From: an uncultured Spartobacteria bacterium
GTDB lineage: Bacteria; Verrucomicrobiota; Verrucomicrobiia; Chthoniobacterales; Chthoniobacteraceae
Reading direction: 5' to 3'
Assembly (NCBI GenBank): GCA_903919125.1
Contig: CAIXGS010000076.1
Coordinates: 186,001 to 250,000, forward strand
Length of the DNA stretch: 64,000 nt
Below, one piece after another: positions 10,539-21,598 of this stretch (its first letter is position 1; each line of letters begins with the position of its first letter). The notes under the pieces are model-generated. The model made no database searches and was not told where the DNA came from. It saw only the letters and a program-made list of their open reading frames with translations. The translations under genes and the position numbers were made by a program.

Positions 10539-11300
10539 TTAATGGGCTGGGGCAACTACTGGTGCAGCTTGGTCGGGCTGCCGCTCAGAACGATCCTGAC
10601 GGTCGCCGCGATCGCGGTGGGGGCGGTCACCTCTTTCACCACGCTCACGCTGAGGCTGGTTCGGATTAGCGGGAGCCTCTGCCGGTTTCCACAGCCAAAC
10701 TTTCACGCCGATGATCCCGTACATGGTATGGGCCTCATAAAAACCGTAATCGATCGGGGCGCGAAGAGTATGCAGCGGGATCTTACCTTCACGGAAAGAC
10801 TCAGAGCGGGAGATTTCGGCACCACCGAGGCGACCTGCACAGCGAATCTTAATACCGATTGCACCGAAATCCATAGTCGCCTGAATCGTCTTCTTCATGG
10901 CGCGACGGAATGAGATGCGGCGCTCAAGCTGCAAGGCGACGTTCTCGGCGACCAACTGGGCGTCAAGCTCCGGAGTTTTGATCTCCTGAATGTCGATTTT
11001 CACTGACTTGCCACCACTCATCTTGCCGATGTCCTCGGTCATACGCTCGATTTCAGAGCCCTTGCGACCAATCACCACTCCAGGACGGGCCGTACAAATT
11101 GTGACGCGAATGCTGTTCCAAGCGCGCTCAATCACCACCCGAGAGACGGCCGCCTGCCTGAGCTTATCCTTCACGTACTTGCGAATTTCAATGTCGCCGT
11201 GAAGAAAAGCTGGGAAGTCTTGATGCGAAGCGTACCAACGCGAACGCCAGTCGCGATTGACTGCCAAACGATATCCGATCGGGTTAACTTTCTGGCCCAT
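10539..11300 (-). CDS. rpsC: 30S ribosomal protein S3 with charged C-terminal tail
   Basis: A 253-residue S3. The KH type-II domain is recognised by CTARPGVVIGRKGSEIERMTEDI (about 69-91), and the C-terminal domain by CAGRLGGAEISRSESFREGKIPLHTLRAPIDYG (about 163-195) and MYGIIGVKVWLW. After residue 213 follows a tail of about 40 residues rich in RGD/RERG/DRQ repeats that ends in a short Ala/Pro stretch, probably disordered. Tails of this kind occur in several phyla. S3 lines the mRNA entry tunnel. It follows rplV by 32 bases. Confidence 0.98.
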   Translation of the reverse strand: MGQKVNPIGYRLAVNRDWRSRWYASHQDFPAFLHGDIEIRKYVKDKLRQAAVSRVVIERAWNSIRVTICTARPGVVIGRKGSEIERMTEDIGKMSGGKSVKIDIQEIKTPELDAQLVAENVALQLERRISFRRAMKKTIQATMDFGAIGIKIRCAGRLGGAEISRSESFREGKIPLHTLRAPIDYGFYEAHTMYGIIGVKVWLWKPAEAPANPNQPQRERGERGDRPHRDRGDRQDRSERQPDQAAPVVAPAH

Positions 11301-11332
11301 AAAATAAAGAGAAATGTTGAAGCAAAAAGGTA

Positions 11333-11668
11333 CTACGCCTTCTCAACAAGAATGATTCTAATGTGACTGCTACGCTTACGGATTGGACCGGCACTGCCCC
11401 GGGCCTTCGGTTGGAAACGCTTTAAAGTAGGTCCCTCACCAACTACAGCCTCCTTGACGATCAGAGTGTCGGCGCGGAGATTGTTGTTATTTTCAGCGTT
11501 AGCAATTGCGCTCTTTAAGGTCTTCTCAACAAGACGCGCGGCTTTCCGAGGAGTGTTTGTCAGAACGTCTAGGGCGTTGGAAACGCTCAGGCCCTGTATT
11601 TCGCGAGTAACCTCGCGGCACTTAAAAGCTGAGAGGCGAGCGCCTTTGTAAATGGAACGTATTTCCAT
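11333..11668 (-). CDS. rplV: 50S ribosomal protein L22
   Basis: A 111-residue L22 with the body SAFKCREVTREIQGLSVSNALDVL and the beta-hairpin region that lines the exit tunnel (GPTLKRFQPKARGSAGPIRKRSSHIRIIL, about 78-106). No unusual insertion in the macrolide-contacting hairpin is seen. In place of the usual rpsS-rplV junction, a gene for an exported protein separates it from rpsS by 565 bases. Confidence 0.98.
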   Translation of the reverse strand: MEIRSIYKGARLSAFKCREVTREIQGLSVSNALDVLTNTPRKAARLVEKTLKSAIANAENNNNLRADTLIVKEAVVGEGPTLKRFQPKARGSAGPIRKRSSHIRIILVEKA

Positions 11669-11700
11669 GGCTATATAATGGTATTGGTTTAAAAGTTAAA

Positions 11701-12210
11701 TTAACGGACAGCCAACCGCACGGGCTTGCCCTCTAGTGTGGAAACATTCCCAGAAAAAGACTGGTCAACCAGCGCTGCCGAAACCGAACTGCGCACATCG
11801 ACCACTCTGGCGTAAACGGAACCACCGACGACAAGCAGTGCACCAGGCAATGCTCCATCAGTACGCCCAACGCCCACCAAAATAACACGCTCTTCGCGAA
11901 TCGATCTCAGAACTGTACCCTGAACAGCCTGTTGCTTTGCTGCAACTGCCGGTTGCAACCCAGCCTCTGCAAGCTGGGATTCTGCGTCTAGTGCGCGGTT
12001 GCGCCACTCGGTGAGTTCCCGCACGATCGATAAAACCGCCCCGTCGCCGCTGCCCAAACCCGCAGCAGCCGCTCCGACAATGTTATTCCTTTCGGCCGCT
12101 TGAGCCACCGCCAACGGCGATGTCAAAAACAGTGCACTCACGCACCATCCCAACCAAGAAGGTAGGGAAAGAGCTGAAGTGGGCCTCTGCACTGCGGAAA
12201 GAACAAACAT
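11701..12210 (-). CDS. Exported protein of unknown function inside the S10 operon
   Basis: A 169-residue protein not recognised as a ribosomal protein. The ATG at 12210 lies 23 bases past the rpsS stop; a longer frame back to 12330 would overlap rpsS and is rejected. Residues 1-37 form a Sec signal peptide (basic start, hydrophobic core WLGWCVSALFLTSPLAVAQAA). There follows a helical stretch with heptad-like character (VLSIVRELTEWRNRALDAESQLAEA, about 55-80). The C-terminal part is probably all beta: VILVGVGRTDGALPGALLVV and VYARVVDVRSSVSAALVDQSF. The coiled coil followed by a beta domain resembles the general plan of MreC, whose beta barrels carry similar G-x-V-x-x-V segments, but the similarity is weak and inferred. 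It must be co-transcribed with S19 and L22. Confidence 0.85.
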   Translation of the reverse strand: MFVLSAVQRPTSALSLPSWLGWCVSALFLTSPLAVAQAAERNNIVGAAAAGLGSGDGAVLSIVRELTEWRNRALDAESQLAEAGLQPAVAAKQQAVQGTVLRSIREERVILVGVGRTDGALPGALLVVGGSVYARVVDVRSSVSAALVDQSFSGNVSTLEGKPVRLAVR

Positions 12211-12232
12211 TGATTTAAAATGAAGTGAAAAA

Positions 12233-12511
12233 CTACTTAGCAACCTTTGCTGTATGAGAACCGTGCTTTTTGAAAACACGGGTAGGAGAGAACTCGCCGA
12301 GCTTGTGTCCAACCATGTTCTCAGTAACAAAAACAGAATTGAAAATCTTGCCGTTATGCACGAGGAAAGTGTGACCGACGAAATCTGGCGTAATCGTAGA
12401 ACGACGCGACCAAGTCTTGATTGGGCGTTTAATGCCTGAATCGTTAATCTTATCGATCTTTTCGAAGAGATGCTGCTCTACGAAAGGACCCTTTTTGAGA
12501 GATCTGCCCAT
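12233..12511 (-). CDS. rpsS: 30S ribosomal protein S19
   Basis: A 92-residue S19: [19 protein letters not shown] at the start and [33 protein letters not shown] (about 51-83) as signature. It belongs to the 30S head next to S13 and bridge B1a. It follows rplB by 18 bases. Confidence 0.98.
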
Positions 12512-12529
12512 ACGGATGGATTAATTAAA

Positions 12530-13372
12530 CTACTTGCGAGCCTTACGGCGTTCGACGATGAAACGATCACTGCCTTTGTGTTTACGACGTGTTTTAAATC
12601 CACGCGCCAATTGTCCCCACGGACTGCAAAGATGCTGGCGACCGCCACCACCCTTAGACTTGCCTTGCCCACCACCATTGGGGTGATCGACAGGGTTCAT
12701 CACCATCCCACGAACAGTTGGGCGAACGCCCTGCCACCGACTGCGACCGGCCTTGCCGCTGGAAACATTCATGTGGTCCACGTTCCCAACCTGACCCATT
12801 GTGGCGTAGCAGTCTTCGTGAACCCGACGAATTTCACCAGATGGTAACTTTAAAAGAGCATATCCTTTCTCACGGTTAGAAAGGACAACCAACTGTCCGG
12901 CAGAGCGGGCTAATTGACCACCCCGTCCAGGGATCAACTCAACACAATGCACAGCTGAACCTAGGGGGACGCGGCTCAGAGGAAGCGCGTTACCAACCTG
13001 AGGGTCTGCCTCCGCACCAGCGACCACTTTCATGCCAACCACTAAACCTACTGGCGCCAATATATAAGCCTTAACGCCATCTGCGTAGGTAAGAAGAGCA
13101 AGCCGAGCCGAACGCAAGGGGTCGTACTCAATTGCCACAACGTCAGCGACGACTGCGCGCTTGGAGCGCTTGAAGTCAACTATACGATGCTTCTGTTTGT
13201 TGCCTCCACCAACGTGCCGACAAGTGATGCGCCCGTTGTTGTTACGACCACCAGTCTTCTTCCGAGTCACAACCAAGCTCTTTTCAGGCTTAGACTTAGT
13301 GATCTCGTCAAAGGATGGTAGCGCCTTGAAACGGTTGGCCGGAGTGAAGGGCCGGAAAGTTTTGAGTGCCAT
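12530..13372 (-). CDS. rplB: 50S ribosomal protein L2
   Basis: A 280-residue L2 with the N-terminal OB domain ([25 protein letters not shown]) and SH3-like domain, the histidine-bearing loop [18 protein letters not shown] (about 228-245) implicated in peptidyl transferase centre assembly, and a C-terminus ending [13 protein letters not shown]2 is a primary 23S binder and intersubunit bridge protein. Length and neighbours are normal. Confidence 0.98.
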
Positions 13373-18858: not shown

Positions 18859-21267
18859 TTACCCCCTCTGAGCGGCGATATTTTCTCCAAAAAAAAGTCG
18901 CGCGGCACCTGACCAATCTCCCATTAATCCCTTTGCATTAACGTTTTGAACAAGCGTCTTCCTGAGCTGTGGATCTTCAACAAGAAGCGTTGTCTTCGCA
19001 CAGAAATCCACCGAGTCCCTAGCGCGTGTGACAAAGCCAGTTTTGCCGTGTTCAACGAGTCCCCGCGGTCCGCCTGCGTCAGAAACAACGCAAGGAATCC
19101 CCGATGCGAGCGCTTCCATTACCACATTACCATATGTGTCCGTTGTACTTGGAAATACAAACACATCAGCGGACGCGTAGGCCGCAGCCAGTTCTTCACC
19201 ATGCAAATATCCTGTAAATATCGCATTTGGAATGTTTTCCTGTAATTCCTCACGGTACGGCCCGTCACCTACCACTGCCAGGATCGCCTTTTGATTACCG
19301 ATTCGTTGCATCAGGGGAATTAGCATATCCAAGTCCTTCTCCCGTGATACTCTACCCACATAGAGTAGAATCGGAACACCCGAGGGCACTCCGCGCTTGA
19401 TCCAAAAGTCTGTGTCTCGTTTTTTATGGTTAAATAATTGGATATCAAGACCTCGCGGTAGAATACGCAAACGCGATGGAGTCGCACCGCGGGCAATCCA
19501 CGCCTCCCGGTAAGGCTCGCTGTTGACAAAAAGTTCGTCTAACCCGGTGTAAAACCAGTGCATGTATGTCCACGTTAGACTCTCCAGACTAGCATCTTCA
19601 GTTAATATTTTGATGTATTTTGGAAAGTCCGTGTGGTAGATGCCTTTTACCGGCAGACCCAGCAGGCGCGCGGCAAGCAATCCCACCAAGCCCACAGGTC
19701 CCGGGGTTGAGACAACAAGCTCCGTAAATCCCTCGCGATGGATATACTCCAGCATTTCAAGCACCGGAGGAAAGGCCAACTTCTGCAGCTCGTACTCCGG
19801 CAATGCGAACTCTCCAATAGGCGCAAAGTTTTTTAGCGGCACTCCCTTGAGTTTGGAATCTTTACGACAACTCAACACCGTGACGTCATACCCCTCGGCA
19901 CGCCCAGCCACAGTCAGCTTAGCGATCGTTGTAGAAACGCCGTTAACGTCCTCGAGCGTATCGGTTAGCCACGCTATTTTGTGCTGCGCCACAGCTCGCA
20001 GATCGCACCCATGGACGGAGCGAGAGAGCTTACGAAGCCAAAGCCCGTCGGGTGCCTCGCGTTTCAGTTCGAAGAAATAGGGCGCAAGCGGCGCCATCAC
20101 GGGAATCAGCACGGCCAGATCCTGAACCGCTTGAATCATGTTTCCCTCGGAAGCCTGCTTGATAAAAGACTTTAAAAACTGAAAGCAAAGCCTTCCCGTA
20201 ATGATATTGGCAATTTTAAATGCCCTTTCCTCTGAGCTCGCAATTCCCTCTAGGTTTTCGCGGAGTACCGACTGAAGTCCCTCACCCTCGACTTCCTCTG
20301 ACAACGCCTTCCAAAGCGACGTGTTAGCTGGCTTTAGAAGTTCAAATATCTTTCCCGAAATAACTCCATCAACCGCGAGTTCCAGCTTTTCGCGCCAAGT
20401 GAGGCTGGTCGGATCCTCTCCCTCCATGAACCTGCCAAGAGCCTGTTGCGCGAAGGCAGAACGCCGCACGGGCTCAAAGCGTTTACCCAGAGCAATAAAC
20501 AGCCTGTTATACATGCCATGCGCGACGGCCAACGGGCCTCCATGCCTGCCCTGCGCCTCACAACGTCCCGCTTTAATGTGCTTTAGAAGCTCCGCGCCCG
20601 TCCCCGCAACTGGCGTCGTGGTCCACGCACGCCCCGCTAGAATCCCAGACTGATCGCCACTCCCTCCTACCAGTACCTTCTCCCACGCCCGAGCATGCAC
20701 CGGGACAATGTCGTGCCGATTGGCGAGCGCTTCAATCTTCCGCTCGCTCAGACTCTGCATAAACTCACTGGTGAACACGTTGGTGAGCTCCGCTCGAAGG
20801 CCGCAAAGCGCCTCAAAGTGGCTAAACATTAACACCAACTTCTCGATATGTGCAGTCTGCAGTCGAGCATCCTTCGAAAACAGGGGATGCGCGACTGCGT
20901 GGGCCAGGTTCTGCTCAATCAAGTACCCGTTCAGTTCGTAGAGATTCTCCCGCAACTCGAGTAAGTCGGCGTGCTGTGCTTCGGTAATTCCCCAAACTAA
21001 GAGGGATACTGGCGTGCGATCTTCAGGGAAAAGAGCCGTGATCTGCGTCGATATAAACACTCCGGGAAGCCCCTGCAGTGCGAGACACCCTTCGATCGAA
21101 TGGTGGTCCGTCAGAGTGAAGTGCGTAAATCCTCGGATTTTCAGAGCATCATACAGCGCACGCGGGTCGGAATAACTCGCAGCCATTCCCAGTCGGCGAA
21201 AGAGCCATTCTTCCGGTCTACCGCTAAAATGAGAGTGCAGATGGAGGTCAACCTTTTGGGTAATCAC
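18859..21267 (-). CDS. PHP-domain/GT4 glycosyltransferase fusion
   Basis: About 802 residues when started at the GTG at 21267, just ahead of the first domain; another GTG at 21354 would add 29 residues, and neither has a good ribosome binding site. The N-terminal domain is PHP-type: KVDLHLHSHFSGRPEEW near residue 6 supplies the HxH metal motif, and FTLTDHHSIEG near 45 the next His pair. About residues 450-800 are a GT-B fold glycosyltransferase of family 4, with DTLEDVNGVSTTIAKL at its N-terminal half, the nucleotide-sugar region GRVSREKDLDMLIPLM, and the E-x7-E-like PSTTDTYGNVVMEALASG. Such GT4 proteins transfer sugars to lipids or glycans at the cytoplasmic membrane face. How the PHP hydrolase-like domain helps is not known. 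Confidence 0.85.
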   Translation of the reverse strand: MITQKVDLHLHSHFSGRPEEWLFRRLGMAASYSDPRALYDALKIRGFTHFTLTDHHSIEGCLALQGLPGVFISTQITALFPEDRTPVSLLVWGITEAQHADLLELRENLYELNGYLIEQNLAHAVAHPLFSKDARLQTAHIEKLVLMFSHFEALCGLRAELTNVFTSEFMQSLSERKIEALANRHDIVPVHARAWEKVLVGGSGDQSGILAGRAWTTTPVAGTGAELLKHIKAGRCEAQGRHGGPLAVAHGMYNRLFIALGKRFEPVRRSAFAQQALGRFMEGEDPTSLTWREKLELAVDGVISGKIFELLKPANTSLWKALSEEVEGEGLQSVLRENLEGIASSEERAFKIANIITGRLCFQFLKSFIKQASEGNMIQAVQDLAVLIPVMAPLAPYFFELKREAPDGLWLRKLSRSVHGCDLRAVAQHKIAWLTDTLEDVNGVSTTIAKLTVAGRAEGYDVTVLSCRKDSKLKGVPLKNFAPIGEFALPEYELQKLAFPPVLEMLEYIHREGFTELVVSTPGPVGLVGLLAARLLGLPVKGIYHTDFPKYIKILTEDASLESLTWTYMHWFYTGLDELFVNSEPYREAWIARGATPSRLRILPRGLDIQLFNHKKRDTDFWIKRGVPSGVPILLYVGRVSREKDLDMLIPLMQRIGNQKAILAVVGDGPYREELQENIPNAIFTGYLHGEELAAAYASADVFVFPSTTDTYGNVVMEALASGIPCVVSDAGGPRGLVEHGKTGFVTRARDSVDFCAKTTLLVEDPQLRKTLVQNVNAKGLMGDWSGAARLFFGENIAAQRG

Positions 21268-21598
21268 GGGTTTAAATGATCGCAAATTAAAGGCGTTTGA
21301 GTGAAGAATAAGCGACAAACTGGAAACAGTGACTCTCGGGACGCGTCGGTGCACCTAAAACCAAGAACAATGAAACGTCCGCCATCACTTCCGATCACCT
21401 CTCATGCAACCTGCATGGCACTAAACTTGCTCAAAAACATTTACCAATAACTTCAAGTGATTTTCGCTGATTTTCTTCTAGGGATTTTCCGAATACCGAT
21501 TTTCACTCATTAAGTAATTTTCCCGAACTCCCGCCTCCTTTCGTTCTGCATTCGTAAACTCGCGTATCCAAGCGCTAATTCAACACTATCAACATCCT
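21268..21598. promoter_or_regulatory. Divergent promoter region, glycosyltransferase and DUF1501 gene
   Basis: An AT-rich gap of 244 to 331 bases (depending on the start chosen for the glycosyltransferase) between divergent genes. It must hold promoters in both directions, but no pair of boxes stands out. No small gene or repeat was found. Confidence 0.4.

What the first reader, a model, noticed from the sequence alone, without database searches (positions are those of the whole stretch)
11701..12210. Exported protein gene inserted between rpsS and rplV
The rplB-rpsS-rplV-rpsC order is among the most stable in bacteria. Here a 169-residue protein with a Sec signal peptide, a short helical stretch and a beta-rich C-terminus is embedded between S19 and L22 on the same strand. 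It will be made in step with ribosomes yet works outside the cytoplasm. The loose MreC-like layout hints at a growth-coupled envelope role, but that is inference.
Basis: partly seen in the sequence, partly recalled or inferred. Interest (0 to 1): 0.55.

Follow-up and report, generated by a model that had tools for sequence, protein, structure and literature searches.

The report
Exported protein inside ribosomal S10 operon
A gene for an exported coiled-coil and barrel protein of unknown function sits between two ribosomal protein genes in many Verrucomicrobiota, including the human gut bacterium Akkermansia muciniphila, which may tie production of an envelope protein to production of ribosomes.

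Summary
The 169-residue frame (window 12210..11701, minus strand) is a real gene under purifying selection, 22 bp after rpsS and 32 bp before rplV. In its genus, all 8 genomes whose assembly holds rpsS have it there; the other 4 lack rpsS. Longer relatives lie in the same slot across the order, the class and some other classes of the phylum, including Akkermansia muciniphila. Some lineages have a nearly empty site.

The build is an N-terminal export signal or anchor, a coiled coil of varying length, and a C-terminal six-stranded barrel of the FlgT-C/MreC/F1-ATPase fold. No curated family matched the window protein significantly. It is not MreC, which the genome encodes elsewhere, though the family's barrel is a remote relative of MreC's first barrel. 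Most likely it is a non-catalytic periplasmic scaffold whose dose follows ribosome synthesis; that role is inferred. The alternative, a passenger frozen in a conserved operon, is not excluded.

The parts
11701..12210 (-). CDS of the exported protein X (169 aa, ATG start, stop included)
   Evidence: homologues in the same place; purifying selection
12097..12210 (-). predicted signal peptide, residues 1-38, hydrophobic stretch ending in AVAQA (likely cut near residues 36-38)
   Evidence: sequence and rough hydropathy rule; cleavage not tested
11965..12045 (-). helix 56-82, corresponding to the coiled coil that is much longer in other family members
   Evidence: AlphaFold2 model; long form helices 10-78, 83-120, 126-143
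11704..11934 (-). C-terminal six-stranded barrel, residues 93-169 (FlgT_C / MreC / F1-ATPase N-terminal barrel fold)
   Evidence: pLDDT 96-97; Foldseek and VIA-align; conserved glycines and V-x-x-R motif
12233..12511 (-). rpsS (S19), 22 bp upstream of X
11333..11668 (-). rplV (L22), 32 bp downstream of X
12530..13372 (-). rplB (L2)
10539..11300 (-). rpsC (S3)

Best explanation
X is the S10-operon member of a Verrucomicrobiota family of exported, apparently non-catalytic envelope proteins. Steps shown by sequence or model: it is a real gene; it has an export signal; it has a coiled coil (long, short or absent by lineage) and one C-terminal FlgT_C/MreC-like barrel; and it is embedded without room for an obvious promoter between rpsS and rplV in much of the phylum. 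Steps inferred: it is co-transcribed with ribosomal proteins, exported by Sec to the periplasm or held at the inner membrane, oligomerises through its coil, and its barrel binds a partner in the envelope (as related barrels do in MreC and FlgT complexes), so that the amount of an envelope scaffold or adaptor follows ribosome output.
For: Same place in 8 of 8 genus genomes that hold rpsS. At loci with both S19 and L22 scoreable: 21 of 21 (of 22 loci), 30 of 30, 76 of 76 (of 80) named loci, 20 of 20 class representatives; these sets were picked by profile hits and overlap in genomes. From rpsS-anchored regions outside the class, 9 of 26 scoreable (of 40 fetched) have X. Akkermansia muciniphila has it (G300, 100% Amuc_1100). 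Selection on the protein: dN/dS about 0.12-0.23 in 11 of 11 pairs. X distances follow ribosomal distances (Mantel rho 0.34, 0 of 999 permutations reach it, 56 loci). Barrel fold and relatives. N-terminal hydrophobic stretch in 55 of 57.
Against: No experiment on localisation, partner or phenotype. Several lineages have clean losses or never had it (gaps of 7-47 bp), and two 0.9-Mb genomes keep MreC but lack X, so it is dispensable in some settings. Conservation of place alone does not prove that co-expression matters. The coil shrinks to nothing in some lineages (108-130 aa forms), so a fixed coiled-coil mechanism cannot be general. The fold is shared by proteins with unrelated jobs (F1-ATPase). 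No oligomer was modelled.
Confidence: 0.45

Rival explanations
1. Passenger: X is an ordinary periplasmic protein whose gene happened to land in the S10 operon of an early Verrucomicrobiota ancestor and stayed because that operon is rarely rearranged; its expression with ribosomal proteins has no special meaning.
For: S10 gene order is unusually stable (established knowledge); X evolves much faster than its neighbours (mean distance 0.71 against 0.31); it is absent from several lineages; paralogues with the same barrel sit elsewhere in the genome in mixed contexts.
Against: Where X is kept it stays in this one slot while coil length changes widely, and near-empty sites at this slot show that the operon does tolerate editing here.
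Confidence: 0.35
2. X is a divergent part of the rod or elongation machinery, a one-barrel partner of MreC.
For: Remote barrel homology to MreC (NCBIfam MreC best 1.2e-3 in 3 of 54; Pfam MreC best 1.8e-3 in 4 of 54); similar order of parts.
Against: Akkermansia-like G237 has X but no MreC match, while the other 38 of 39 genomes, with or without X, have MreC, so presence does not track MreC; FlgT and F1 barrels fit as well.
Confidence: 0.1
3. Regulatory nascent chain: translating an exported protein inside the S10 message brings its polysomes to the membrane or senses Sec capacity (SecM-like), tuning rplV and later genes.
For: An exported protein directly upstream of rplV with short spacers.
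Against: No conserved C-terminal arrest-like motif is visible in the alignments; a whole folded barrel domain is conserved, which a sensor would not need.
Confidence: 0.05
4. Not a functional gene (chance frame or decaying relic).
For: Fast divergence and shortened form in this genus.
Against: Open in 8 of 8 genus loci, low dN/dS, invariant glycines and arginine.
Confidence: 0.01

Closest known systems
Unnamed Verrucomicrobiota family: membrane-anchored coiled coil plus the same C-terminal barrel, encoded outside the S10 operon
   Same: Same C-terminal domain (hhalign 99.2%, E 1.5e-19), same order of anchor, coil, barrel
   Different: Elsewhere in the genome (near rny in L241 and L244, near ruvC in L238; gene names from reading the neighbours, not from a scan); looks permanently anchored
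FlgT C-terminal domain (PF16538; flagellar H-ring protein)
   Same: Best structural match of the long form (3w1e Z 11.3, 1.9 A over 79 residues; 8z5n Z 11.8, 1.8 A over 75); weak Pfam match in 19 of 54 members, best 6.2e-5
   Different: FlgT's other domains are absent and X has a coiled coil; no flagellar context at the locus
MreC (PF04085)
   Same: Anchor or signal, coil, barrel; remote homology of the barrel to MreC's first barrel
   Different: X has one barrel; MreC is a separate gene in the same genome; locus is S10, not mre
F1-ATPase alpha/beta N-terminal barrel
   Same: Fold of the barrel (Z about 10.6, 1.9-2.7 A over 68-73 residues)
   Different: No ATPase domain; fold resemblance only
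secY, adk and map in ribosomal operons of many bacteria (recalled)
   Same: Non-ribosomal genes, one of them for a membrane export protein, inside ribosomal operons
   Different: Those are widespread and of known function; X was found only in Verrucomicrobiota as far as searched and its function is unknown

Membership tests
MreC | Match to Pfam PF04085 over its cut-off | tested here: not met
   P0001 has no MreC match at E up to 10; 4 of 54 family members at E up to 0.1, best 1.8e-3 (bits not shown there)
MreC | Two barrels after the coil | tested here: not met
   One barrel in both models
MreC | Is the genome's MreC | tested here: not met
   A 138-bit MreC lies on another contig, G000:C8
MreC | Acts with MreB, MreD, RodA, PBP2 | not testable with these tools
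   needs interaction data
FlgT | FlgT_C domain over Pfam cut-off | tested here: inconclusive
   None in P0001; 19 of 54 members at E up to 0.1, best 6.2e-5; cut-off 27 bits, bits shown for one member only, 19.1; fold agrees
FlgT | N-terminal and middle FlgT domains | tested here: not met
   Region before the barrel is signal plus helix only
Verrucomicrobiota anchored coil-plus-barrel family | Same C-terminal domain by profile comparison | tested here: met
   A6 against A8: 99.2%, E 1.5e-19 over 74 columns; genus profile A2 joins A6 at 94.2%, E 1.2e-7
rpsS-X-rplV family of the order, class and phylum | Lies between rpsS and rplV and matches the family profile | tested here: met
   profile A3 finds the window genome at E 1.1e-7

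The most novel reading that the evidence does not exclude
Verrucomicrobiota carry a phylum-specific genetic wire between ribosome production and the cell envelope: a periplasmic scaffold translated from the S10 message, so that envelope building capacity is set by ribosome output at each growth rate.
Probability: 0.25. Interest if true: 0.8.

Novelty: new variant of a known kind. Interest (0 to 1): 0.6.

Why it matters
A gene of unknown function is kept in one of the most conserved operons of bacteria across much of a phylum, including a cultured human gut species in which it could be tested. If the coupling matters, it is a concrete case of envelope growth tied to ribosome synthesis by gene arrangement. 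It also offers a simple marker, the rpsS-rplV gap, for the history of Verrucomicrobiota, and draws attention to a protein family that the curated libraries searched here do not cover.

Tried and rejected
Pfam, NCBIfam and PDB sequence searches gave mainly coiled-coil noise plus weak FlgT_C, MreC and TsaP matches. X as the genome's MreC: rejected. X as a substitute for MreC: rejected as a rule, since 38 of 39 genomes with or without X have MreC. SecM-like arrest: no conserved end motif seen. Internal promoter or terminator: none beyond chance. Remnants of X in the two 0.9-Mb genomes and in G038: nothing above noise by tblastn. Neighbours of the anchored paralogues: mixed, not informative. Counts by profile A3 alone (195 of 213 genomes in the order; 290 of 384 in the class) include hits to the anchored paralogues, so positions were used for the claim. 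MreC rows with wrong or partial frames were dropped before alignment A7 (22 of 30 kept). The AXA rule matched 57 of 57 and tells nothing. Papers: the ten searches listed no paper whose title or abstract start describes a gene between rpsS and rplV in Verrucomicrobiota; only passages were read of PMC4960237, PMC2474590, PMC3444138 and PMC13335675. Supplements could not be read.

Full report
What is there. The minus-strand frame at window 12210..11701 encodes 169 residues and lies between rpsS and rplV in an otherwise standard S10 order. Spacers are 22 and 32 bp; no sigma-70-like promoter was found in 11300..12600.

It is a gene. A single-sequence search found it in 8 of 12 genomes of the genus and in none of the 45 other genomes of that call. 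A search with the S19 protein showed that the 4 remaining genus genomes (G002, G005, G007, G010) have no rpsS match in their assemblies, so all 8 genus genomes that can be judged have X, and all 8 have it between rpsS and rplV. Identity to the window protein falls from 77% to 35%, while S19, L22, L2 and S3 stay at 83-99%. Window against G009: NG86 dN 0.158, dS 0.968.

It is a short form of an old family. The genus profile (A2) matched 44 of 213 genomes of the order, 36 of them outside the genus at E 1e-6 to 1e-3. I had loci for 22 of those 36: in 21 both S19 and L22 are present and X lies between; in one (L029) S19 is not in the stretch. The relatives that are complete have about 255-315 residues: signal, long coiled coil, same C-terminal domain. 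A profile of ten of them (A3) found matches in 195 of 213 order genomes, including the window genome at E 1.1e-7; some of these matches are paralogues outside the operon. All 30 best loci of that call have X in the slot. A scan of named genomes gave 80 loci from records titled Verrucomicrobia, Spartobacteria, Chthoniobacterales, Chthoniobacter, Udaeobacter, Terrimicrobiaceae and the like; 76 of 76 scoreable have X in the slot, and in the other 4 the contig ends before S19.

Class and phylum. Twenty genomes of the class, picked because they had strong hits (one of them of the window's own family), all have X in the slot. Genomes picked because they had no or weak hits were anchored on rpsS instead: of 30, 22 had rpsS; 3 of these have a short X of 122-130 residues (L171-L173) and 19 have none, 13 of the 19 with gaps of 7-47 bp. 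Further short forms (108-111 residues) lie in the slot in L230, L231, L248 and L250. Outside the class I fetched 40 rpsS regions from the 'same phylum' rows; 26 could be scored, 9 with X in the slot and 17 without; in 14 no L22 was recognised. So the slot was filled early in the phylum, or X spread within it, with several losses; I did not count events on a tree.

Akkermansia. G300 has the Amuc_1100 protein at 100% identity on a single contig of 2,664,102 bases, which equals the length I recall for the A. muciniphila type strain. It has X (236 aa) between rpsS and rplV. A 2026 paper names Amuc_0296, 0297, 0301 and 0304 among ribosomal genes raised by icariin (one passage of PMC13335675); I could not fix the locus tag of X.

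Build and fold. The Akkermansia-like long form (L174) models at mean pLDDT 87: helices 10-78, 83-120 and 126-143, then a six-stranded barrel at about pLDDT 96. The window protein models at 79, with a low-confidence N-terminus, helix 56-82 and a barrel 93-169 at pLDDT 96-97. Against PDB the long form ranks the flagellar FlgT first (Foldseek 9.0e-5 and 1.4e-4; Z 11.8 over 75 residues and 11.3 over 79), then F1-ATPase N-terminal barrels (Z about 10.5) and MreC 2j5u (Foldseek 7.8e-4). The window protein ranks F1 barrels first (Foldseek 3.8e-4; Z 10.6), with FlgT at Z 10.3, which is tied. Fold shows no function here. Profile comparison links X to membrane-anchored coil-plus-barrel paralogues of the phylum (99.2%, E 1.5e-19), the genus form to the long form (94.2%, E 1.2e-7), and the family remotely to MreC's first barrel (88.7%, E 2.6e-6); the genus profile alone is not linked to MreC.

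How it may work. It is in all likelihood exported (55 of 57 with a hydrophobic start against 21 of 112 control chains, a rough rule). No conserved catalytic-looking cluster is seen, mainly glycines and one V-x-x-R motif, so a binding or scaffold role is the simplest reading. Co-transcription follows from the spacing but was not shown. That its dose is meant to follow ribosome output is the bold step; the plain alternative is a passenger in a frozen operon. Against a universal need: absences in several lineages, and two 0.9-Mb genomes that keep MreC but have only 152 and 317 bp without recognisable remnant in the slot.

What is known. No curated family matched the window protein significantly (Pfam best E 0.05; NCBIfam none), and across 54 members only weak matches appeared. 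None of the ten literature searches listed a paper describing this gene; only passages of four papers were read.

Noticed in passing
L223-L246, L249, L251 (e.g. L223:1117-1980, L244:1489-2244): Verrucomicrobiota have a second, unnamed family: N-terminal membrane anchor, long coiled coil and the same C-terminal barrel, outside the S10 operon; in L241 and L244 it neighbours what reads as RNase Y, in L238 RuvC.
   Followed up: partly
G237 (f15 g47, Akkermansia-like): Only genome of 39 without a PF04085 MreC match.
   Followed up: no
G041 and G050 (L161, L160): Two 0.9-Mb single-contig genomes of the order keep MreC but lack X, with 152 and 317 bp without recognisable remnant in its place.
   Followed up: partly
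G660:C1022, G717:C235, G687:C67: S19 matches that run through one TAA codon; could be a sequence error, a short S19 or recoding.
   Followed up: no
L154 (G038), between rpsS and rplV: A 556-bp gap with no recognisable X although two other genomes of its genus (G083, G084) match the X profile strongly.
   Followed up: partly
window 18859-21354 (-): 831-residue frame directly upstream of rpsL that reads as a PHP-like metal-dependent domain joined to a glycosyltransferase (from reading only).
   Followed up: no
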